Source of the DNA: a virus
DNA: 23,646 nucleotides
Reading direction: 5' to 3' (one strand)
IMG/VR virus record: IMGVR_UViG_3300002231_001538
Span: 1 to 23,646 of that record
The notes below the pieces were generated by a model. That model ran no database searches. It was not told the origin of the DNA and saw only the letters and a program-made list of their open reading frames with translations. The position numbers and the translations under genes are program-made. Shown piece after piece: positions 11,346 to 22,963 of this stretch (position 1 is the first letter of the stretch; each line of letters starts with the position of its first letter).

Positions 11346-12143
11346 ATGATAAAACTCTATGACTTATTAATGGAGCAAGTAGGTAACCCGAAAGCAATTA
11401 TTTTAGCTGGCGCTCCTGGTGCTGGTAAGGGCTTTATCTTAAGTGGTTTAGATTTAGGTAATCTTAAAGTACTTAATGTAGATAATAATTATATTAATTT
11501 GCTTAAAAAAGCAAATGTATCATTAGATTTAAAAAATGCAAGTCCTGAAGGTAGAAGTAAAGCTGCAATTGCTATGGCTCAAGCTAATAAGGAATTTAAG
11601 GGTAAAGTAGCAGCCACAATTGAAGGTAAAGAATCATTTATTTTAGATGGTACTGCTGCATCAATTAAACAAACAGCTAATCTAAAAAATGAATTAGAAG
11701 AAGCTGGTTATGATGTATTTATGCTTTATGTTTATACTGATTTAGAAAGATCTTTAAAACAAAACCAAGATAGATTTAAAAAGTCTGGTGGTAAGGATAG
11801 AAGTTTAGCTCCCGCAATAGTATTACGTACTTGGGCTTCAGTAACTAGTAATTTTAAACCATATGAAGCTATGTTTAAGGATAATTTTGTCTCGGTGGCT
11901 AATACATTAGAGGATGAAAAATTAAGTGATGTAGCAGATATTATAAAAAAATATTTAGATCCATTTAAACCAACAGGAACTAAACCAAAAACTGATAAAC
12001 AAAAAGCTAGAAGTGAAAGGAGTAAAGCAGAATTAAATGCTAAAGTAAAAGAATTACTAGCTGATGATAATGTAAATATGATTATTAATAATTCTGTATC
12101 AAAGGAAGAAGCACAGGCTAAAATAAAACAATTTTTAAATTAA
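11346..12143 (+). CDS. P-loop kinase/zeta-toxin-like NTPase with CTS-like N-terminus
   Basis: This 265-residue protein has a Walker A motif GAPGAGKG at residues 22-29. LDGTAASI precedes a helix. KNELEEAGYDVFMLYVYTD resembles the second strand of zeta-toxin/polynucleotide-kinase NTPases. RSLKQNQDRFKKSGGKDRS then looks like the lid. The Lys-rich C-terminus is low-complexity. The first ten residues, MIKLYDLLME, end in L-M-E just before the domain, like a capsid-targeting sequence cut by a T4-type prohead protease. The substrate is unknown; zeta-like kinases phosphorylate nucleotides, sugars or peptides. Its stop overlaps the next ATG (taATG), and both proteins share the short-tag layout. Confidence 0.7.
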   Translation: MIKLYDLLMEQVGNPKAIILAGAPGAGKGFILSGLDLGNLKVLNVDNNYINLLKKANVSLDLKNASPEGRSKAAIAMAQANKEFKGKVAATIEGKESFILDGTAASIKQTANLKNELEEAGYDVFMLYVYTDLERSLKQNQDRFKKSGGKDRSLAPAIVLRTWASVTSNFKPYEAMFKDNFVSVANTLEDEKLSDVADIIKKYLDPFKPTGTKPKTDKQKARSERSKAELNAKVKELLADDNVNMIINNSVSKEEAQAKIKQFLN

Positions 12144-14017
12144 TGAATTTAATTGATGTAAATACATTATTAAAAGAAATAGTACCTGATCAAAGTATTA
12201 GTAAAAAATCCAAAAAAGTAGGAGTTTATGCTGGTAGTTTTAAACCACCTACTAAAGGTCATTTTGCTGTTGTTCAAAAGGCTTTAAGAGATAATCCTGA
12301 TTTAGACGAATTAAATATCTTTGTTGGTACAGGGATAAGAGATGGTATAGACCAATCTCAATCTATGTTAATTTGGGATATCTATAAAAAGTATTTACCT
12401 TTTAAAGTGAATATAATGCCGGTTACAAAACCCCCTATTAAAGCAGTTTATGATTACGCTAAAGATAATCAAAATGAACAAGTTAGTTGGATTATTGGTG
12501 CAAGAGAGGGTAATGAAGATGATTTTAAAGATATAGCCCTTAGAACTAAAGCGGCTGATAATTATAAAAACTTAGTAGTTAGACCTACTATTACTCAATC
12601 TGGAGCTTCTGGTACTGCCGCAAGAAATGCATATAAAGTATCACAGGAAAAATTAGAACCCTTATTACCTAAAAATTTAAATCAACAAGAAAAAGATGAT
12701 GTATTTAATATTTTAAATAGAAGATTAACTGAGGCTGATCCTAAAAAAGGTACAGGTAAAAAACCTAAGGGTTCGGGTAGAAGATTATACACTGACGAGG
12801 ATCCAAAAGATACGGTTGGTATTAAATTTAGCACTAGACAAGATATAGTAGATACTTTAAATAAAAAGTCTTTTAAAGCTAAATCACATGCAAGGCAATC
12901 TCAAATAATTAACTTAATACATCAAAGAGTAAGAGCGGCATTAGGTAGAACTAAAGATCCTGCTAAAAAGAAAAAATTAAAATCTGGGTTTGAATATATA
13001 AAACAAAAAAAAGAGGCGTCTAAGAAAAAAACTCAAAGATTAAAAAAACAAAAACTAAAAGAAGTATTAGATCCAAAAACATTTGATTTTGGTCCATTAA
13101 TTGATTCATTAACTGCTAGTATGGAAAATGATGGGTTAAAATTAAAACCTTACCCCAGAATAAGAATGATTCATGATGAAGAAGCTAATGCAGATAATTT
13201 CTTTGGTATGACTGCTTATTATGACCCTAATAATAGAGAAATAGTATTATATACTTTAGGTAGACACCCTAAAGATATTATGAGATCTTATGCTCATGAA
13301 TTAATACATGTACATCAACATAATGAAGATAGATTACATGATATTAAAACTGATAATGTTAACGCGGATAAACATTTAGAAAATCTTGAAAGAGAGGCTT
13401 ATGAAACAGGAAATATAATGTTTAGAAGCTGGACAAATAAAATAACAGAAAAAAAAACTAAGGATCCCTTTGGTTTAAATGCTTATGCTAGAGAATTAGC
13501 TCAATTAAACGAGCAAAAAGAAGATTATTATATCTATTTGGATATGGATGGTGTTGTAGCTAATTTTAATAAACGTTTTAAAGATTTATCAGGTTTACTA
13601 CCAGATCAATTTATTGAAAAAAATGGAAAAAATGCATTTTGGGATCTGATTGATGTAAAGCATAAAGTTGCATTTTGGAGAGGAATTGAAATAATGCCCG
13701 GAGCAGAAAAATTAGTTAGTTTTGTGTCTCAATATCCTTATGAAATGTTAACTGCTCCTTCAACCAAAAAACAATCAGTTATTGGAAAAAGCTTGTGGAT
13801 TAAAGATAAAGTTGGTACATTATATCCTAGTAAACCTAAAGTTACTTATAGGGCTGCTAAAGAGAAACATAATGTTAAATCAGAATTAACAAAATTTGAT
13901 ATTTTAATTGATGATAAAAAAAGCACTATTGATAGATGGGATGCTAAAGGAGGTACAGCTATATTTTATCAAAACGCAGATCAAGTAATTAATGATCTGA
14001 AGAAATTAGGTTTATGA
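12143..14017 (+). CDS. Fusion: nucleotidyltransferase / DUF5872 / HExxH peptidase / HAD phosphatase
   Basis: This 624-residue multidomain protein has four parts. After a tag-like start (MNLIDVNTLLKE), residues ~25-165 are an H-x-G-H-like nucleotidyltransferase (GSFKPPTKGH at 31-40, ASGTAARNA at 155-163). Residues ~200-300 are basic and resemble DUF5872 (GSGRRLYTDEDPKDTV). Residues ~310-430 hold a zincin site, HELIH at 385-389 with a downstream EREAYETG as possible third-ligand helix. Residues ~462-624 are a HAD hydrolase of the 5'-nucleotidase kind: D467-M-D469-G, T537, K573, D590-D591. Domain borders carry L-x-E motifs (RRLTE/AD, QKLKE/VL, AQLNE/QK), suggesting proteolytic release as separate virion proteins. 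Whether each domain is active is unknown. Confidence 0.8.
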   Translation: MNLIDVNTLLKEIVPDQSISKKSKKVGVYAGSFKPPTKGHFAVVQKALRDNPDLDELNIFVGTGIRDGIDQSQSMLIWDIYKKYLPFKVNIMPVTKPPIKAVYDYAKDNQNEQVSWIIGAREGNEDDFKDIALRTKAADNYKNLVVRPTITQSGASGTAARNAYKVSQEKLEPLLPKNLNQQEKDDVFNILNRRLTEADPKKGTGKKPKGSGRRLYTDEDPKDTVGIKFSTRQDIVDTLNKKSFKAKSHARQSQIINLIHQRVRAALGRTKDPAKKKKLKSGFEYIKQKKEASKKKTQRLKKQKLKEVLDPKTFDFGPLIDSLTASMENDGLKLKPYPRIRMIHDEEANADNFFGMTAYYDPNNREIVLYTLGRHPKDIMRSYAHELIHVHQHNEDRLHDIKTDNVNADKHLENLEREAYETGNIMFRSWTNKITEKKTKDPFGLNAYARELAQLNEQKEDYYIYLDMDGVVANFNKRFKDLSGLLPDQFIEKNGKNAFWDLIDVKHKVAFWRGIEIMPGAEKLVSFVSQYPYEMLTAPSTKKQSVIGKSLWIKDKVGTLYPSKPKVTYRAAKEKHNVKSELTKFDILIDDKKSTIDRWDAKGGTAIFYQNADQVINDLKKLGL

Positions 14018-14595
14018 ATAAAGAATCCAAATCGGTTTTAAAAAAACAATTCCAAGAAAAAGACGTTCAAAGATTAAGAAATCTAATGACTGGCAAATAT
14101 GGTGATAAAACTATACAAAGTGTTGGTTATAAAAAAGCTGAAATAGTCCATGAAGAAGGTGATATTTGGGAAGAAGATGGAAGAAAATGGACTATTAAAG
14201 ATGGTATAAAACAAAATATTACTAAGTTAGATAAAGCTAAAAAAGCACATGTTGTTCCTTTATTTTGTCCAAATTGTAAAAAACAAATGAAGCTTAAGAA
14301 TGATCATGAGCTTTATAAAATTCACAAAAAATGCTTAGATTGTGTAGTAGAAATGGAGCATGAACTACAAAAAGCTGGAAAGTGGGAAAATTATCAACAA
14401 AATATTAAAAATAATGAAATTGATAATAAAATCAGAGATTTTAAAGAATATGTAAAAGATAGAATTTCCGAATCAAATAATAATTATATTTCCGAAGCGG
14501 GTCATAAAGAAACATGGAAAGGTAAAATAGATGAAAAAAGAGTTGACCAACATCTATCCCAGGTAATTGAATATCTAGAGTCACTTAAGAAATAG
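14014..14595 (+). CDS. Zinc-ribbon phage protein
   Basis: This 193-residue protein has one likely zinc-binding site: CPNC at residues 85-88 and CLDC at 107-110. An N-terminal basic helix precedes a beta segment (GDIWEEDGRKWTIKDGIKQN, 49-68). From memory, the combination of this segment with a zinc ribbon occurs in unnamed proteins of other marine T4-like phages. The C-terminal part is helical and contains two I-S-E motifs (RISESNN, YISEAGH). It overlaps the preceding fusion gene by 4 bases (ATGA). A structural or DNA-associated role is possible, and nothing catalytic is visible. A 28-base gap follows. Confidence 0.7.
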   Translation: MNKESKSVLKKQFQEKDVQRLRNLMTGKYGDKTIQSVGYKKAEIVHEEGDIWEEDGRKWTIKDGIKQNITKLDKAKKAHVVPLFCPNCKKQMKLKNDHELYKIHKKCLDCVVEMEHELQKAGKWENYQQNIKNNEIDNKIRDFKEYVKDRISESNNNYISEAGHKETWKGKIDEKRVDQHLSQVIEYLESLKK

Positions 14596-14598
14596 TTT

Positions 14599-14609
14599 CA
14601 TATATTTAT
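14599..14609 (+). promoter_or_regulatory. CATATATTTAT motif before the gene at 14624
   Basis: The 28-base gap contains CATATATTTATAA, a close variant of the CGTATATT element, ending 14 bases before the ATG. The first two bases differ (CA for CG), so this is weaker support for the same element. Confidence 0.25.
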
Positions 14610-14623
14610 AACAAATAAATGAT

Positions 14624-15010
14624 ATGAGTAATTCATTTGATGTACATAAATGGAGATTTAATTTAATGATGGAAGCTCTTGAAAAAGAAACTCAGGAGCA
14701 GATTGATGAATTACTGCCTAAAATTAAACGAATAGATTTTTCTTATACTGATTATGGGGTACTATATAAAATTAGAATGTATGGTGCTGATGGGAAAGAA
14801 TTATATATTTTAGGTGACGATGATGATATTTTTAAATATAATCGTTTAGATGATGATAATGTGCGTTATATTGCTCAAAAATTAAAAATACCTGTAACAG
14901 ATGATTTTGCGGGTAGATCCTATAATTATGATTATTATCAAAGTTTAATTCCTGCTTTTAAAGATAAAGGTATTGAATTAACTCATGATGATGTAATGGA
15001 TACAAGCTGA
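14624..15010 (+). CDS. Hypothetical acidic protein
   Basis: This 128-residue acidic protein is rich in Asp and Tyr ([24 protein letters not shown]). It has no signal peptide, membrane segment or known motif. The first ~30 residues are helical ([20 protein letters not shown]), and the rest alternates short strands. It follows a gap with a promoter-like motif, and its TGA shares the A with the ATG of the next gene, so it is coupled to the DUF6321 protein. The acidic composition next to very basic neighbours suggests a partner in capsid-core or DNA-associated assembly, but this is only inference. Confidence 0.65.
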
Positions 15011-15945
15011 TGAATATAAAAGAAATAGTAAAAAAAGTACTTTCCGAAAAAAAAAAGAAATCTAAACTTTGTAAAAGAGGTAGAGATTATATTGCCGCTA
15101 GAAAAAGAGCTGGTGAGAAGTCATCTGCTTACTTATCAGGTAGAGCCGTAAAAGTTTGTAAGGGTTCTATTAAAGGTGCAGGTGGTAAAAAGAAAAAATC
15201 CTATAAAGAATCTATTGATTATGATGAAGCTTTAACATTAAGAGGAATGTTAGCTGATTATGAAAAACAAAGAAAACAAATATTTAGGGATATGGAAAAT
15301 GATCCTTCTATTGAACCAGAAGGAGGCCCAGTATCAAATGAATATGGTAATAGATTAAATAAACTTGAGGATAAAATTTATAAAGTTAGAAAACAACTTT
15401 ATGATTATGACTTAAATGAAGCATTTGATGAACTAGATGATGGATTCGACCCAGAAATAGAAGCATTAATAAAAGCAGGACCTAGATTAAATAAAGAAAG
15501 ATTTAAGGATGTAATTTATTACATTCATAATAATTGGATGGCAGGTAATTATGGTGATGATTATGCCATAAGAAGAATAAGTAAATATCTTAATGCTCTT
15601 GAGGAAAACATAGATCCTAAAGCTCAAAAAAAACATAAGGGTAAAGCAGCTCCTTTTGGTTCAGCATATGAATTAGCAGAAACAGAATGGGCTAATGAAT
15701 CATTAAGAGATTGGTTTAAAAAAGAAGATTGGGTAAGAATTAATACTTCTGGTAATATAACTGGTCCCTGTGGAACAATGAAAAAAGGTAAACCAACTAC
15801 TAGATGTTTACCTAGAAAAAAAGCTCAATCACTTACTAAGGCCCAAAGAAAAGCAACTGTAGCTAAAAAAGTACGTGGTAGTAAAAAAGGAAAACAGTTT
15901 GTAAAAAATACTAAAAAATCAGAATTTAAAAAGAAAAGTGAATAA
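15010..15945 (+). CDS. Basic internal/structural protein with DUF6321-like C-terminus and CTS-like tag
   Basis: This 311-residue, highly basic protein starts with [13 protein letters not shown] followed by a Lys run, a tag-like helix ending L-S-E. Residues ~20-51 hold a Cys/Arg/Lys segment ([21 protein letters not shown]21 and C50). The middle is coiled-coil-like and acidic, with L-N-E/A at 135-138. Residues 231-300 match DUF6321: [33 protein letters not shown]. Such basic modules with paired Cys recur in phage and giant-virus proteins of unknown function and may bind DNA or a negatively charged scaffold. It overlaps the following lipoprotein gene by 8 bases. Confidence 0.75.
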
Positions 15946-16873
15946 ATTTAATAAATGGCACCAGAAACAATTATTTTGGTTCATGGAAAAGCTAAACTTA
16001 GGAGTATATCAAGTGGCTTGGATTTCATGGATCAAAGGGCTTATTATGGGTGCTCTTTTACTTTTTTTATGTAGTTGTAGTTCCTATAGATTGGCTACTT
16101 TAAATCATGATCCAATGTATCCCGTGGATTATGTTATTCCTATAGCAGATAATACTAAAGTTGATACCCTTTCTTATTCACAATTTAAATGGAAATTAAG
16201 GACCGATTTTAATTTTAGATGGAACTATGCTCAGTACGCTATGAACCAACCTTATAACTGGTATAGTAGTTTCAGTTATAATGTTTGGAGACCCTATAAT
16301 TCATTTGATGTTTATTTTAATAGACATAATTTTTGGTATGATTGGGCATTTAATTATCCTTATTACTGGGGTTATAGTAGTTGGAATAATCCATGGAGAA
16401 ATCACTGGTATAGACCCTATAATTGGGGGTATAGTTGGTACAATGGTCCTTGGCATAATTCTGGTTATAATGTAGTTTGGAATTCAAGTAGAGAAAACAA
16501 TAATGTTGCTTATATTAATGGTAGAAGAGGAAGTAGAAATGTTAATTTTAATACTAATAATAACATAGAAAATATCGTTATTAGAAGATATAACAACCCA
16601 AGAAACAATGTAGATAATAATAATTTAAACAATATTGTGAATGCTTTAAAAGATAATTATAATGTTAGACCTAGAGTTTATAATAATCCTAATAATGTAA
16701 TTAGAAATAATAATAAACCAGTTGTGCCTAATTATAATAACAATAATATTAATTCTAGATCATCTACTCCAGTAAGAACTTATTCTTCTCCACCATCAAA
16801 TAATATCTCACGAGGTAGTTCAGTATCAAGTGGAGGTAGTTCAAGAGGGGGTAATTCTAGAGGAAAAAACTAA
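15938..16873 (+). CDS. W/Y- and N-rich lipoprotein
   Basis: This 311-residue protein has one membrane segment at residues ~30-46 that ends in a lipobox-like LFLCSCSS (Cys45/Cys47). The mature part has a Trp/Tyr-rich region (repeated YW, NPW and YNW) and an Asn-rich, then Ser/Gly-rich tail. The layout resembles Bacteroidota host lipoproteins often misnamed 'vitellogenin II', so it may have come from a host. The n-region before the hydrophobic core is long; ATG at 15983 (residue 16) would give a more normal signal. It is the only clear envelope protein among presumed virion proteins, suggesting superinfection exclusion or surface modification, which is inferred. A shorter frame inside at 16281-16475 is a by-product of the skewed composition. 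Confidence 0.65.
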
Positions 16874-16895
16874 TATTTATAAATAAAAATATACA

Positions 16896-17894
16896 ATGGA
16901 CAGCTTTGATTATAAAAAATATTTAAAAGAGGGTCGTTTATTTGATAATAACGAATCTCTTATTTCAGAATCTCAAGTTTCTGAAAAAAAATATAAGCAA
17001 GGATACGACGATAGAGAAGACGAATCCTTAGGTGCTAGAAAAGGCGCCGAAAAAGACAAAAAACAATCCTTTAAAGATCGTAGAGACGATTCTTATGGTA
17101 AATTTGGTAAAAGAGATGCCGAAGCTAAGGGCAAAGCCAAAGGACCAGGTAAAAATAAAGTCAACAAAGAAAATGTTGAAGAAGTAGGCAAAGGATATTT
17201 TAAAAAGAAATTTGGTGTAGGTAAAAAAGGATTTAAAATGGCGGATAGAAAAGAATTATCTGAAAATGTTCTTTCTATGTATACTAAACTCCAAGAAGGT
17301 GCTTATCCATTTGACGAATGTATAGCTGATAATGAGGGGAAATATGGAGAGGAAGGAGCTAAAAAAGTATGTGGTGCTATTAGAGCAGCATATGGAGAAG
17401 GATTAGAAGAAAAAAAAGAACTACCTCAATCAATTAAAGATAAAGAAGCTAGAGATGCAGAAATAGAGGCGAAAAAATCTAAAGGTATGATAAAAATGGA
17501 AGACCTTAAAGCCGAAGTTAGAGAAGCTATATTTGATGCATTAAGTGAAGAATCACAATATAATGACTCTATTTACTCAGAAGAAGTAAACGAACAGGAA
17601 GATGATGTTGATGTTGATGTTGATATAGATGATGAAGTAGAAGCAGATGTTGATGTTGATGTTAAAGATAAAGTTAATGTTGATGCTGAAGGTGACGAAA
17701 TAGATATTGAAAAAAAAGCAGTAAAAGCTAGAGTAGAAGTTGGTTTATCACCTGAAGAAGAAATAGTTCAAGATTCTTTAAAAGCCGCAATGGATGCTGC
17801 TGATGCTTTAGGTAGTGAAAAATTAGCTGATCAAATAGGAAACACAATTACTTTCTTTACAAGAGAATTTGTAGTTGGTAATCAAAGTGATTAG
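16896..17894 (+). CDS. Tagged internal/head protein with acidic DV repeats
   Basis: This 332-residue protein starts MDSFDYKKYLKEGRLF, the same tag as two genes near 22.3-22.7 kb, with a protease-like Y-L-K-E/G. Residues 30-115 are highly charged and basic. Residues 139-168 (FDECIADNEGKYGEEGAKKV, then CGAIRAAYGE) form a small module that I recall in phage head proteins. The C-terminal third has acidic D-V repeats (DVDVDVDID, DVDVDVKDKV) followed by a helix. L-x-E/G sites recur (LKE/G, LQE/G). I expect a prohead core or ejected protein processed during maturation. TATAAATA lies at 16878, but that octamer is common by chance here. Confidence 0.7.
   Translation: MDSFDYKKYLKEGRLFDNNESLISESQVSEKKYKQGYDDREDESLGARKGAEKDKKQSFKDRRDDSYGKFGKRDAEAKGKAKGPGKNKVNKENVEEVGKGYFKKKFGVGKKGFKMADRKELSENVLSMYTKLQEGAYPFDECIADNEGKYGEEGAKKVCGAIRAAYGEGLEEKKELPQSIKDKEARDAEIEAKKSKGMIKMEDLKAEVREAIFDALSEESQYNDSIYSEEVNEQEDDVDVDVDIDDEVEADVDVDVKDKVNVDAEGDEIDIEKKAVKARVEVGLSPEEEIVQDSLKAAMDAADALGSEKLADQIGNTITFFTREFVVGNQSD
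17604..17663 (+). repeat. GATGTT hexanucleotide repeats (Asp-Val coding)
   Basis: Three GATGTT units at 17604-17621 and three at 17646-17663 encode Asp-Val repeats inside the acidic C-terminal region. The identical codons suggest recent slippage expansion. A related GTTGAC/GTTGAT run ends the gene at 20059. Confidence 0.7.
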
Positions 17895-17897
17895 TAC

Positions 17898-19592
17898 ATG
17901 CTTAATGAACGCAAACTTACAGAAAGAGAACTAGATTCAAGAGAAGCTGCCATTCAAGGTTTGTTAGGAAACAAACGAAATCTAGTTAAAAAGTATGGTA
18001 AGGATGCTGAGAAAGTAATGTATGGTATTGCTACTAAAAAAGCTAAATCTAAAGTAGAGGAAATGAATAAAGATAAAATCAGAGAATTAATTTATAAAGC
18101 CTTAACTAAGGAGGATAATGATCCATCTGGTGAATATCTTGAAGGTGATCCAGGTGAACATGTTGAAGAAGGAACTTGTGGTTATGGTGAAGATGGTAAA
18201 ATAGGTAGAAAACCTGCAGGCCCCCACTTAAATAAAGAAGCAGAAAGAGCAGCTGATAAAGATAATGTTAATGTATTTGGTTACCAAACTAAATATTATA
18301 AAGTATGTCCAGGTGCTCAAGAATTTATGAGAAAAGTAGTAAATGGTGGTTATGGTGACATGTCTGAAAAAAAGGAAGAAATTATAAGAGTAGCTAAATT
18401 ACATGATTTACTTTTTATGAGAAAATTAAAAGCTTTAAAAGATCCTAATTATGCTAAAAAAATTACTACATCAGGTGAAGTAGAATATATAGCTGACGAA
18501 ATTAAGGATATGGTTGAAAACCTAGGTATTTCTAAAGCGGATGTAGGTTACATAGATATGCATGTTGAAGATATATTCAAGGCCGTTGGAAGAATAGATG
18601 AAAATTTAAATGAAGGCCATGGTTTAGATCAAGGTGATTTAGATCTTTTAAAACAGTTTGTTGATTCAATGGGATTTGATAGAGAACCTGTTGATGCTAA
18701 AGATTTTAGCAAGTTAAAAAAGATACTTAAATTCATAATTAAATCTAACATACTACAAGACAAAACAAAAGATTTATCTAAGGGCAAAGTTAACGAAAAT
18801 ATTGAAGAATTTGAAGTTGATGATGCTGTAGTGGAACTTAGAAGGATAGTTGATGAAATAGAAGAAAAAGCGGATGAAGCCAGAGATATAGTTAGAGATA
18901 TATTCCCAAATGAATTATCTAGATTAGATGGTTATGGCGCCTTTAATGCTATGTACTCAGCTAATAGATATGATACCACATTAGGTAAATTTGTTGATAG
19001 ATTAGAAGAAGAAGGATATGATATTGAAGACGGAATAGTTTATGTAAATGAAGACCTAGATGTAGGCCATGTTGATGATGAACCAGGTATGTTAAAATCT
19101 GAATTAGCTAGAGCTGGAAAAATGATTCAAATGCTTTATAGAGCAATTGATAAATATGATGGTAAAGGTGAGGTTGATTTCCCTCAATGGTGGCAATCTA
19201 AAATTATTAAGGCAAATGATTATTTAGATAGTGCATTTGATTATTTAGATGGTAAAGAAAATGTAGCTAAAATTGATGCCGTGATTGATATGAATGAAAA
19301 AGAATTATCTAAAAGTGAACAAAATTCACTTAAAAAAATAGAAAAGGCACTTAGAAAAGCTTCTAAATCTCATAAATCTCAGTCTTCAGATTTAGCTAAA
19401 TCTACTAAGGCACATAAACTTCAAGCTGATAAAATAGCTAAAATAGTTAGAGAAAAATTATCTAAAAGAAATGATGTAGGTGATTTTGTAGATGATTTTA
19501 AAAAATCTAAGGCAAAACAATTTAGAGGTAAATCTGCCAAAAAGAAAAAAGAAATGGCTGTAGCGGCTTATTTAGCAAAACAAAATGACTAA
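17898..19592 (+). CDS. Large helical internal/structural protein
   Basis: At 564 residues this is one of the longest proteins here, and it is strongly helical and charged. Residues 2-70 ([20 protein letters not shown], then [19 protein letters not shown]) form a module I recall from structural proteins of marine phages. A Gly-rich, Cys-containing linker ([17 protein letters not shown], 92-108) and a helical central region follow. The Lys-rich C-terminus (~450-564) looks DNA-binding or scaffold-like. L-x-E sites occur near the N-terminus (KLTE/R) and at ENLNE/GHG (235-242). The gene starts 3 bases after the preceding stop and ends 2 bases before the next, so the group is translated together. 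No enzymatic motif was found. Confidence 0.65.
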
Positions 19593-19594
19593 TA

Positions 19595-20059
19595 ATGACC
19601 AAAGCAGAATTAAGAGAAAAAATAAGATCACTAGTACTACAAGTTAGAGGTGAGCAATCAAAAGCAGATGAAGCTGCCATCGCTTATGATGAACTAACTA
19701 AATTTCCAGAACTTAAAGATATTATTGTAAGTTTAATGACTCATGAGTTTGATTCTTTTTTGGAAGGAATTGATTGGGTTGCTCCTAGACCTACTACATT
19801 TAGAATTAATTTATTAAATGGTCAAAACTTCCTACTTTCATTTTCTAAAAGAAGTTGGATAGCACAAATTGAAGGTAAAAAATACTACTTACTAAATCTT
19901 GATGAAGAAGAGTATGCTGCCTTAGCTATTAGTCGTATATTACAATATGGCCCTGAAAGTGGAGCTGATGCAAGTGAAGATGCAGATGCAGATGCAGATG
20001 CAGATTCTGGTGGAGGAGCCGAAGAAGAAGTTGACGTTGATGTTGACGTAGAAGCATAA
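19595..20059 (+). CDS. Hypothetical protein with acidic D-A/D-V tail
   Basis: This is a 154-residue protein. Residues ~1-115 look like a small folded domain (an N-terminal helix KAELREKIRSLVLQVRGEQ, then strands RINLLNGQNFLLSFSKRSWI). The last ~35 residues are low-complexity acidic: ADADADAD, GGG, then EEEVDVDVDVEA. The tail echoes the D-V repeats of the gene at 16896, suggesting shared interaction or exchange of a repeat module. From memory, the folded part resembles unnamed proteins of marine T4-like phages. Stop and next start overlap by one base (taATG). Confidence 0.65.
   Translation: MTKAELREKIRSLVLQVRGEQSKADEAAIAYDELTKFPELKDIIVSLMTHEFDSFLEGIDWVAPRPTTFRINLLNGQNFLLSFSKRSWIAQIEGKKYYLLNLDEEEYAALAISRILQYGPESGADASEDADADADADSGGGAEEEVDVDVDVEA
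19979..20050 (+). repeat. GATGCA and GTTGAC/GTTGAT hexanucleotide repeats
   Basis: About four GATGCA units (from 19979) encode Asp-Ala repeats, and GTTGAC-GTTGAT-GTTGAC (20030-20047) encodes Val-Asp repeats at the protein's end. This kind of tract can change length by slippage. Confidence 0.65.
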
Positions 20060-21150
20060 TGGATATTTTAGAAAAAATAATAAGAGAAAATAGTTGGAAA
20101 TTTGATAAAGGATATCCTGATAGTCAGAAAGATATTGATTATTTAAAATCTAAAATTACTAATATAATATCAGAGCAAGAAGAGGAGGATCTTGATGAAT
20201 TAAGAAATAATTTAAGCAGTTTAATTAGAAATATTTCTGATGCTGATGAATTAAAACAAATTCTTAAATATACTAAAAATGTAGGTTTTGGAAAATCAAT
20301 GAAAAACCATCTATCTACTAAAAATCTAAATAAAAAAGATATTTTATTTTTCCAATCACTTCTTTCAGATTTAGGAAAAACTGGAGAATTTTCAAAAATT
20401 GCCGAAAATCCCCCTAAATTAGATGTAACTAGAGAAAATTATTATGAGCAAATACCTGGTTTTACTAGTGCCGAATTAGAATCACTTTATAAAGATATGA
20501 AGGATTCAATTCAAGGTACAGTTTCTGTTGGTCCCGGTGAGGCTTTTTTAACAGTATTTTTTGATAATGTTAATAAAGTAGCTGGAGGTGGAGACTTAGA
20601 TATTGATGGAAAACAAGTTGAATTAAAATCCCGTACTGGAGCTTCAGGGGCATTAGTTGCACCTGGTTATGTTGTTAGAGGTAAAGGTGAGGATATCTGG
20701 AAAGATTTAACTAAATTAGTTGATAAATTTGATTTAGATAATGATCAAAAAGAAGAGTTAAAGAAAATTGCTCTTGTTAGAGGCCAAAGAGGTTTTACTT
20801 GGGCTTTTAAAATTAATAGTATTTATCAACAAGCATTAAATATGGGAGAAGATCAGAAAAAATTAATAAAATTATTTTCTGATGAAATTAGTTCCTGGTA
20901 TAAAAATAAATTAAATTTAGATTTTAAATCTTATTTTAGTGATGATGAGTTTGAAGCTAAAAGGTTTATAGGAGATTTAGCTAAACAATTAGCTAGGGAT
21001 TATTATGAAGAGAAAAATGATGATGCATTTATGATCTCCGATACTAAAGGAAATTTTAAATACTATGAAGGAGATGAATTTATAGATAGTATAGGTAATG
21101 GAATCACAATCTCTGCTCCATCAGATTTAGTTCCAAGATTAAAAGTATAA
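20059..21150 (+). CDS. PD-(D/E)XK nuclease-like protein with CTS-like N-terminus
   Basis: This 363-residue protein is tag-like at the start (MDILEKIIRE/NSW). Its N-terminal half is helical and charged. The central core has a PD-(D/E)XK pattern: GPGEAFLTVFF with E161, then GGGDLDIDGKQVELKSRTG with D179/D181 and E188-x-K190. The E...D-x(8)-E-x-K arrangement resembles restriction-endonuclease-like proteins of marine phages that I know only as 'structural'. The predicted activity is metal-dependent DNA cleavage. If carried in the virion, it could act on host DNA or on competitors after injection; that is inference. It could also be a catalytically dead structural relative. Confidence 0.65.
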   Translation: MDILEKIIRENSWKFDKGYPDSQKDIDYLKSKITNIISEQEEEDLDELRNNLSSLIRNISDADELKQILKYTKNVGFGKSMKNHLSTKNLNKKDILFFQSLLSDLGKTGEFSKIAENPPKLDVTRENYYEQIPGFTSAELESLYKDMKDSIQGTVSVGPGEAFLTVFFDNVNKVAGGGDLDIDGKQVELKSRTGASGALVAPGYVVRGKGEDIWKDLTKLVDKFDLDNDQKEELKKIALVRGQRGFTWAFKINSIYQQALNMGEDQKKLIKLFSDEISSWYKNKLNLDFKSYFSDDEFEAKRFIGDLAKQLARDYYEEKNDDAFMISDTKGNFKYYEGDEFIDSIGNGITISAPSDLVPRLKV

Positions 21151-21154
21151 TAAT

Positions 21155-21778
21155 ATGTGTAGCTGCGGATGTAATACTTGTGAAACAAAAATTAGAGGCC
21201 CTCTTTTAACCGAAAGTAGGGTTAAAAAACTAGTATCTGAAAATTTACAATATCATATAAATAGAGATATTCCATTAATGGAAAGTGAATTCAGAATTGG
21301 TTCTGAAGCACATTTATCTTTAATTAAAGAAGCAAGAAAATTATATTCTAGAGGTGTACTTGATTTGTGTGAAGAAGATAAAGGTATAATGGAAACGCAT
21401 TTAGGTGAATTTGATTTATATGAAGATACTTTAGTACCATTAGATTTACCTATGTTAAATGAAGGTGAACAATTAGACGAAAAGAAAAAAGCTAAAAAAA
21501 AGAAAAAAGACCCACCAATTGGAAAACCAAAAAGAGGGGGCCCTAAAGCATACTATGTTTATGTTAGAGATCCTAAAACTAAAAGAATTAAAAAAGTAAC
21601 ATTTGGTTCAGGTGGTTTAAGAGCCAAAATAAGAAACCCTAAAGCCAGAAAAGCATTTGCTGCTCGTCATAGATGTTCAACTGCAAAAGATAGAACTACT
21701 GCCCGTTATTGGTCTTGTAGATTACCTAGATATGCTAAACAACTAGGATTAGGAGCTAATATGAATACTTTTTGGTAG
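21155..21778 (+). CDS. Basic protein with Cys-rich N-terminus and RHxC...YWSCR module
   Basis: This is a 207-residue protein. The N-terminus MCSCGCNTCETK has a C-x-C-x-C-x-x-C cluster able to bind metal. A tag-like region with repeated L-x-E (LLTE/S, LVSE/N) follows, and then LNE/GEQLDE before a Lys run. The C-terminal ~90 residues (RHRCSTAKD at 171-179, ARYWSCRLPRY at 183-193) form a module I recall at the ends of cyanophage and other marine-phage structural proteins, probably DNA- or capsid-binding. Cys174 and Cys188 may pair. The L-x-E sites suggest a precursor cut into an acidic N-part and a basic C-part. Function is unknown. Confidence 0.65.
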   Translation: MCSCGCNTCETKIRGPLLTESRVKKLVSENLQYHINRDIPLMESEFRIGSEAHLSLIKEARKLYSRGVLDLCEEDKGIMETHLGEFDLYEDTLVPLDLPMLNEGEQLDEKKKAKKKKKDPPIGKPKRGGPKAYYVYVRDPKTKRIKKVTFGSGGLRAKIRNPKARKAFAARHRCSTAKDRTTARYWSCRLPRYAKQLGLGANMNTFW

Positions 21779-21803
21779 AATTAACAAATTAAATTAAATT
21801 AAA

Positions 21804-22094
21804 ATGAGTATATTTAATAAAAACGAAAAACAGATTTTAGAAAAATTAGATAAGATCCAAGCAAAAACTGATCTATTATCACAAATAGCATTTGATGTTC
21901 ATTGGTTTGATGCTGTCTCTGGTAGTGATGGAGATCCTACAGATGGTATTTTTCATCAAATAGTTAAAAACCAACAAACAATCATAGAACAAAATAAAAA
22001 ACTATTACAAAACCTATTAGATGGTCAAGGTCAAAATGATAATAGTTTTACAGATTTGCTAAATTACTGGAAAGAATTTAATAGCAAAAAATAA
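21804..22094 (+). CDS. Small coiled-coil protein
   Basis: This 96-residue protein has a helical N-terminus with heptad-like spacing (EKQILEKLDKIQAKTDLLSQ), a loop (GSDGDPTDG) and a second helix (IVKNQQTIIEQNKKLLQNLL). There is no signal or enzyme motif. It lies after a 25-base gap and 0 bases before the next gene. It may be an adaptor or trimeric stalk in the virion core, but nothing specific can be said. Confidence 0.6.
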   Translation: MSIFNKNEKQILEKLDKIQAKTDLLSQIAFDVHWFDAVSGSDGDPTDGIFHQIVKNQQTIIEQNKKLLQNLLDGQGQNDNSFTDLLNYWKEFNSKK

Positions 22095-22343
22095 ATGCAA
22101 CCATATAAAGATAGTTCTAATATAAGAACTTTCTCTAAAGATGTTGATCCAATGGATTTGGTTTGGCATCAAGATAATGAGGATAGAAAAATAGAAATCC
22201 TTGAAGGTGAAGGATGGTGTATTCAACGAGATAATATGCTACCTAGAGCGATGAAGAAAGGAGAAACTATATTTATAACCAAAGGTGAAATTCACCGTGT
22301 ACTAAAAGGTACAACTGATTTAAAAATTAGAATAAATGGATAA
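22095..22343 (+). CDS. Cupin-like small protein
   Basis: This 82-residue protein reads as a single short cupin-like beta-barrel: LVWHQDNEDRKIEILEG (23-39), GWCIQRDNMLP, KKGETIFITKGEIHRVLKG (54-72). The His in VWH, the Glu/Asp cluster and the final His in IHRV could hold a metal, as in cupins. Related short proteins are, as I recall, common in marine phages without a known role. Its start abuts the preceding stop, and it overlaps the next gene by 8 bases. Confidence 0.6.
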   Translation: MQPYKDSSNIRTFSKDVDPMDLVWHQDNEDRKIEILEGEGWCIQRDNMLPRAMKKGETIFITKGEIHRVLKGTTDLKIRING

Positions 22344-22647
22344 TTTTGATTTAAAAAAATATTTAGCTGAAGGCAAGCTATTAAAAGAAGAACTTATGCC
22401 TAAAAAAATAAGTAATAAACCTTTTACAATTGTTTATCAAACTGATGATATGACTGATTATGAAGATTACGATGAGTTACTATCTAAAAGAGAACAAAAT
22501 TTAGCAACTGGTAACGATGGTGACAAGTTTGTATTTGATAGTAATACACCTGCGGATGAAATTGAAGATTTTCTTATGGCAGAAGATCCAGAAGAAGGTA
22601 ATAAAAAGCTAGAAAGATTTGGTTTAAGTAAATACTGGAAATACTAA
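22336..22647 (+). CDS. Small tagged protein 1 (MDNFDL...YLAEGKL)
   Basis: This 103-residue protein starts with the tag MDNFDLKKYLAEGKLL. It shares 14 of the first 15 residues (Lys7/Arg7 differs) with the following gene and has a close relative at 16896. Y-L-A-E/G fits a T4-type prohead protease site (L-x-E then small residue). The body is an acidic alpha/beta domain (PFTIVYQTDDMTDYEDYDEL, ending FGLSKYWKY) with no known match. I expect removal of the first ~11 residues and packaging in the capsid, as with T4 internal proteins IPI-IPIII; this is inferred. Confidence 0.65.
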   Translation: MDNFDLKKYLAEGKLLKEELMPKKISNKPFTIVYQTDDMTDYEDYDELLSKREQNLATGNDGDKFVFDSNTPADEIEDFLMAEDPEEGNKKLERFGLSKYWKY

Positions 22648-22651
22648 TAAA

Positions 22652-22963
22652 ATGGATAATTTTGATTTAAGAAAATACTTAGCAGAAGGTAAATTGTATG
22701 AAGCAATTAATCTTGATATAGAAGATGATATAGTATACTTAAGTGGAGATTCAGGTGAATATGAAGGTGAAATTGAAGATGGAAAAACATCTTTTTCTAT
22801 TATATATGATGATTTAGATTATAGAATATCAGATCAATATGATGAAAATAATATTGAAGATTTTTTAGGTAAAGGTCATGCATTTGTAGAATTAGCTAAA
22901 AAATATGACCATAAGTGGGGTATTGAACGTGATTTGGTTGGTATAACAATAAAATTAAAATAA
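22652..22963 (+). CDS. Small tagged protein 2 (MDNFDL...YLAEGKL)
   Basis: This 103-residue protein has the same N-terminal tag (MDNFDLRKYLAEGKLYEA) but an unrelated acidic body (EAINLDIEDDIVYLSGDSG, GEIEDGKTSFSIIYDDLDYR, then HKWGIERDLVGITIKLK). A conserved tag on a different body is the pattern expected of modular packaged proteins rather than simple duplicates. It lies 4 bases after the previous gene. One base after its stop begins the Cys-rich micro-ORF. Confidence 0.65.
   Translation: MDNFDLRKYLAEGKLYEAINLDIEDDIVYLSGDSGEYEGEIEDGKTSFSIIYDDLDYRISDQYDENNIEDFLGKGHAFVELAKKYDHKWGIERDLVGITIKLK

What the first reader, a model, noticed from the sequence alone, without database searches (positions are those of the whole stretch)
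11346..22963. Family of proteins with capsid-targeting-like N-termini and (L/I)-x-E cleavage motifs
At least seven genes begin with a short amphipathic helix ending in L/I-x-[75 protein letters not shown] and MDILEKIIRE. T4 internal proteins start MKTYQEFIAE and are cut after (L/I)-x-E by gp21. This suggests an array of packaged, processed and perhaps injected proteins, including a kinase, a nuclease and a peptidase/phosphatase fusion.
Basis: partly seen in the sequence, partly recalled or inferred. Interest (0 to 1): 0.82.

Follow-up and report, generated by a model that had tools for sequence, protein, structure and literature searches.

The report
Swappable packaging tags on phage cargo
A marine virus of bacteria appears to label a set of enzymes with short, swappable address tags that send them into the virus head, where the head's own protease should cut the tags off and cut multi-enzyme chains apart, so that ready-made enzymes may enter the next cell with the DNA.

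Summary
The N-termini are real, and the idea behind them holds, with corrections. What is beyond chance is that the same N-termini recur on unrelated proteins. The tag M-x-x-FDLKKYLAE sits on 67 unrelated bodies in IMG/VR. Different tags replace each other on the same enzyme. A scan of all 400 X-x-Y pairs puts LxE first both at shared N-termini and at domain junctions of ORF 12143-14017, which I read as a polyprotein (nucleotidyltransferase, basic linker, zincin, HAD nucleotidase). Relatives encode a gp21-type prohead protease (Peptidase_S77); this contig ends before that position. Published virion proteomes of cyanophages S-CREM2 and S-SZBM1 contain cytidylyltransferases, distantly homologous to the first module; I found that these begin MKNFSSFLTE and MRFRQFIIE, like T4's capsid-targeting sequence MKTYQEFIAE. 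I conclude: T4-type capsid targeting and gp21-type processing, expanded into an interchangeable-tag and polyprotein cargo system in marine, probably Bacteroidota-infecting, T4-like phages. A new variant of a known kind; cleavage and injection are inferred, not shown.

The parts
11346..12143 (+). Zeta-toxin-like P-loop kinase with class-2 tag MIKLYDLLME (11346-11375)
   Evidence: PF06414 E 1.3e-15; N-terminal LxE in 69/69 orthologues; the same body carries tag class 1 in L249
12143..14017 (+). Predicted polyprotein: tag MNLIDVNTLLKE, NMNAT-like nucleotidyltransferase, basic module, HExxH zincin, HAD 5'-nucleotidase
   Evidence: phrog_2643 for the HAD 1.4e-18; zincin fold; LxE at junctions
12725..12733 (+). 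Junction site LTE (residues 195-197) between nucleotidyltransferase and basic module
   Evidence: [LI]xE in 12/16 relatives; basic module found alone with its own tag in L044
13055..13063 (+). Junction site LKE (residues 305-307) before the zincin module
   Evidence: [LI]xE in 65/67 junctions, background 26%
13505..13513 (+). Junction site LNE (residues 455-457) before the HAD module
   Evidence: [LI]xE in 30/32 junctions, background 24%
14624..15010 (+). Small protein with tag variant [18 protein letters not shown]
15010..15945 (+). Multi-module protein with tag [13 protein letters not shown] (15010-15048)
   Evidence: 2/3 orthologues keep the site; one module recurs inside immuto gp079 (read by eye)
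16896..17894 (+). Protein with tag MDSFDYKKYLKE; conserved site is the second one, ISE at 16962-16970
   Evidence: 11/11 orthologues keep a site within the first 30 residues; the first site is variable
20059..21150 (+). KGYPD-family N-terminal module followed by a nuclease-like body; likely site ISE at 20167-20175
   Evidence: [LI]xE at residues 28-45 in 67/69; invariant E161...D179...E188-x-K190 in the alignments
21155..21778 (+). Cys-rich N-terminus with LLTE site (21206-21214)
   Evidence: 39/41 orthologues
22336..22647 (+). Tag MDNFDLKKYLAEGKLLKE (22336-22389) on a small unique body
   Evidence: 67 body clusters share the tag; second site in 62/67
22652..22963 (+). Tag MDNFDLRKYLAEGKLYE (22652-22702) on a different small body

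Best explanation
This is a T4-type capsid-targeting and prohead-protease system, expanded. Late in infection the tagged proteins are drawn into the prohead core by short N-terminal (in one family also C-terminal) sequences of several interchangeable classes. The phage's gp21-type serine protease then cuts after (L/I)-x-E, removing the tags and separating the modules of polyproteins such as ORF 12143-14017. The mature enzymes (kinase, nucleotidyltransferase, zincin, HAD nucleotidase, probable nuclease, small proteins) stay with the DNA and are probably ejected with it, to act before phage genes are expressed. Shown by computation: shared tags, tag swaps, LxE selected at tags and junctions, gp21-type protease in relatives, location beside the head genes. 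Supported by published proteomics in distant relatives: virion presence of tagged enzymes. Inferred: cleavage in this phage, packaging in this phage, injection, function in the host.
For: Shared N-termini on unrelated bodies: 2189 pairs against 0 (C-termini) and 3 (mid-protein); signal peptides came out of the same test as a natural positive control. FDLKKYLAE in IMG/VR: 184 matches, 177 with a start codon within 6 codons, 145 complete proteins in 67 body clusters. The same pattern in 257 Gb of bacterial and archaeal genomes: 7 hits, one a real tag. Second LxE within 16 residues in 62/67 clusters, background 13%, middle residue variable. The tag also lies at the C-terminus behind LQE in relatives of immuto gp077. 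Tag swaps on orthologous bodies: kinase, RCLRIADRKF protein, ART-like domain and others. LxE first of 400 X-x-Y pairs at junctions (32/53, p 2e-15; [LI]xD, [LI]xK, [LI]E and [LI]xxE not enriched) and at shared N-termini (57/127, p 2e-27; non-shared N-termini at background). Peptidase_S77 in 15/30 and 8/14 records of relatives, most misses being fragments. Tagged genes cluster between exonuclease and capsid gene: 9/39 against 0/117 in G025; Fisher p 3.7e-5 (immuto), 2.7e-5 (G010), 0.0045 (G015); strict tags in 1 of 1013 genes of T4, S-PM2, HTVC008M and Cr30. S-CREM2 virion proteome: [LI]xE with E at 8-22 in 10/16 non-tail virion proteins against 16/97 undetected, p 2.7e-4 (PMC10665884). Five of five cyanophage cytidylyltransferases begin M-(x)-F-x-x-F-(L/I)-x-E; two of them were found in virions.
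Against: No virion data exist for this phage or its near relatives in what I could search. The contig ends before the place where gp21 would lie. The motif is short and common. Tag classes 2-4 were defined after looking at the data, and tag copies share ancestry, so counts are not independent. Some classes (MKKSxLKxLIKEE) may include ordinary helices, for example a protein beside baseplate genes and a terminase that matched loosely. The authors of the S-CREM2 paper warn that such enzymes could be co-purified contaminants. The homology from window module A to the cyanophage enzymes is indirect: 28 bits to HTVC008M gp130, then 31.6% identity to S-CREM2 ORF154.
Confidence: 0.85

Rival explanations
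1. The shared N-termini are a docking peptide for another purpose (scaffold assembly only, membrane or replisome location, degradation), and the LxE pattern is part of an amphipathic helix that is never cut.
For: The sequences are short amphipathic helices; some tagged genes lie far from the head genes.
Against: A pure helix does not explain LxE at domain junctions inside polyproteins, a second LxE with variable middle residue and spacing, or the C-terminal tag placed directly behind LQE. Tagged enzymes are found in cyanophage virions.
Confidence: 0.08
2. Junctions of the polyprotein are cut by its own HExxH metallopeptidase module, as proposed for polyvalent proteins of phages and plasmids, not by gp21.
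For: The module has invariant HExxH residues and a zincin-like predicted fold, Z about 7 to IrrE/PprI and 5.5 to the antirestriction protein ArdC; autoproteolysis by such domains is proposed in PMC5512222.
Against: The same LxE sites stand on separate proteins without a peptidase and at junctions of other polyproteins; LxE is the published gp21 specificity (PMC9026906).
Confidence: 0.06
3. Tandem duplication spread the 5' end of one gene, and the shared tag is neutral leftover sequence without function.
For: Six adjacent genes in G025 share the tag and similar A-rich leaders.
Against: Synonymous sites vary while residues are kept; different tag classes replace each other on orthologous bodies; conservation stops just after the second LxE.
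Confidence: 0.03

Closest known systems
T4 internal proteins IPI-III and Alt with capsid-targeting sequence, cut by gp21 (PMC9026906)
   Same: Short N-terminal tag, aromatic residue near position 4 and another just before (L/I)xE, tag shared by unrelated proteins, gp21-family protease, beside or outside the head cluster, C-terminal processing also known (Alt, gp21).
   Different: Here several tag classes are interchangeable, tens of unrelated bodies carry them, many are enzymes, there are usually two LxE sites per tag, and polyproteins have LxE between domains.
IP genes of T-even relatives found by their signal sequence (Repoila 1994, as cited in PMC12373910)
   Same: New internal proteins recognised by a shared N-terminal tag on unrelated bodies; at least 10 reported.
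   Different: Enterobacterial phages; no polyproteins or enzyme arrays described there.
Polyvalent proteins (Iyer et al. 2017, PMC5512222)
   Same: Multi-domain proteins of phages, predicted packaged and injected, with ART and metallopeptidase domains.
   Different: Processing proposed by their own peptidase; here LxE junctions point to the prohead protease. No tag classes described in the passages I read.
phiKZ and SPN3US inner-body and ejection proteins (PMC5694885)
   Same: gp21-like protease, propeptides removed after a glutamate.
   Different: SxE or AxE motifs, long propeptides, giant phages.
Cyanophage virion cytidylyltransferases, kinases and SAM hydrolase (PMC10665884, PMC9146016)
   Same: Homologous nucleotidyltransferase family; N-termini MKNFSSFLTE and MRFRQFIIE read here.
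   Different: Separate genes in the cases read here; the S-CREM2 passages I read mention no targeting tag or processing.

Membership tests
T4-type capsid-targeted, gp21-processed internal head proteins | gp21-family prohead protease in the same genome | tested here: inconclusive
   Not found in the 31-kb contig, which ends after the portal gene; found in 15/30 and 8/14 records of relatives and in immuto in the same gene order
T4-type capsid-targeted, gp21-processed internal head proteins | Short N-terminal sequence ending in (L/I)xE | tested here: met
T4-type capsid-targeted, gp21-processed internal head proteins | The same N-terminus on otherwise unrelated proteins | tested here: met
T4-type capsid-targeted, gp21-processed internal head proteins | Aromatic targeting residues (T4 positions 4 and 7) ahead of the cleavage residues (8 and 10) | tested here: met
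   Tag class 1 only: F then Y/F/W in 112 of 118, then L/I, variable, E; T4 roles from PMC9026906
T4-type capsid-targeted, gp21-processed internal head proteins | Present in purified virions | not testable with these tools
   No data for this phage; tagged distant homologues detected in S-CREM2 and S-SZBM1 virions
T4-type capsid-targeted, gp21-processed internal head proteins | Cut after the glutamate and ejected into the host | not testable with these tools
   Needs neo-N-terminus mapping and ejection assays
Polyvalent proteins | Several enzymatic domains in one phage polypeptide, including a metallopeptidase | tested here: met
   ORF 12143-14017; nucleotidyltransferase by weak Pfam hit and family profile
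Polyvalent proteins | Released by their own metallopeptidase | not testable with these tools
   LxE junctions favour gp21 instead
PD-(D/E)xK nucleases (ORF 20059-21150) | Core fold of the superfamily | tested here: inconclusive
   Invariant E161, D179, E188, K190, but model mean pLDDT 74 and no significant fold match

The most novel reading that the evidence does not exclude
Marine T4-like phages run an open cargo platform: interchangeable targeting tags plus polyproteins whose domains are bounded by prohead-protease sites let any gene be recruited as a packaged, pre-delivered effector. The repertoire includes a kinase, NAD- and nucleotide-metabolism enzymes, zincins and nucleases, and in relatives ART-like domains and an Acb1-like anti-CBASS enzyme. 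The same system explains the metabolic enzymes repeatedly found in cyanophage virions.
Probability: 0.65. Interest if true: 0.87.

Novelty: new variant of a known kind. Interest (0 to 1): 0.77.

Why it matters
It turns a T-even curiosity into a general rule that can be read from sequence: tagged genes are predicted to be virion cargo. That would assign a place of action to many unknown phage genes, give a mechanism for enzymes found in cyanophage virions, and point to candidate effectors and counter-defence proteins that act before phage transcription. It also offers natural tags for loading proteins into capsids.

Tried and rejected
The bare LxE count as evidence: rejected, since background is 17-23% and the exonuclease is a false positive. 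Site IIRE of ORF 20059: rejected. ORF 19595 and ORF 14014 as tagged: rejected. ORF 17898: undecided, because the whole N-terminus is conserved. Major-capsid cleavage site: not resolved; LLEG and ILEN are conserved, but T4's FLTE aligns by eye with LVVE or IVSE. Nuclease fold of 20059: search gave nothing significant. No solved homologue by sequence for the kinase, the HAD module or the nuclease. Pfam over 84 mostly tagged bodies identified few and exposed false positives of my loose classes (terminase, exonuclease). P-SS2 kinase-domain protein in its published proteome: not found by text search. No paper found that reports these tags in marine phages; the library holds open-licence papers only.
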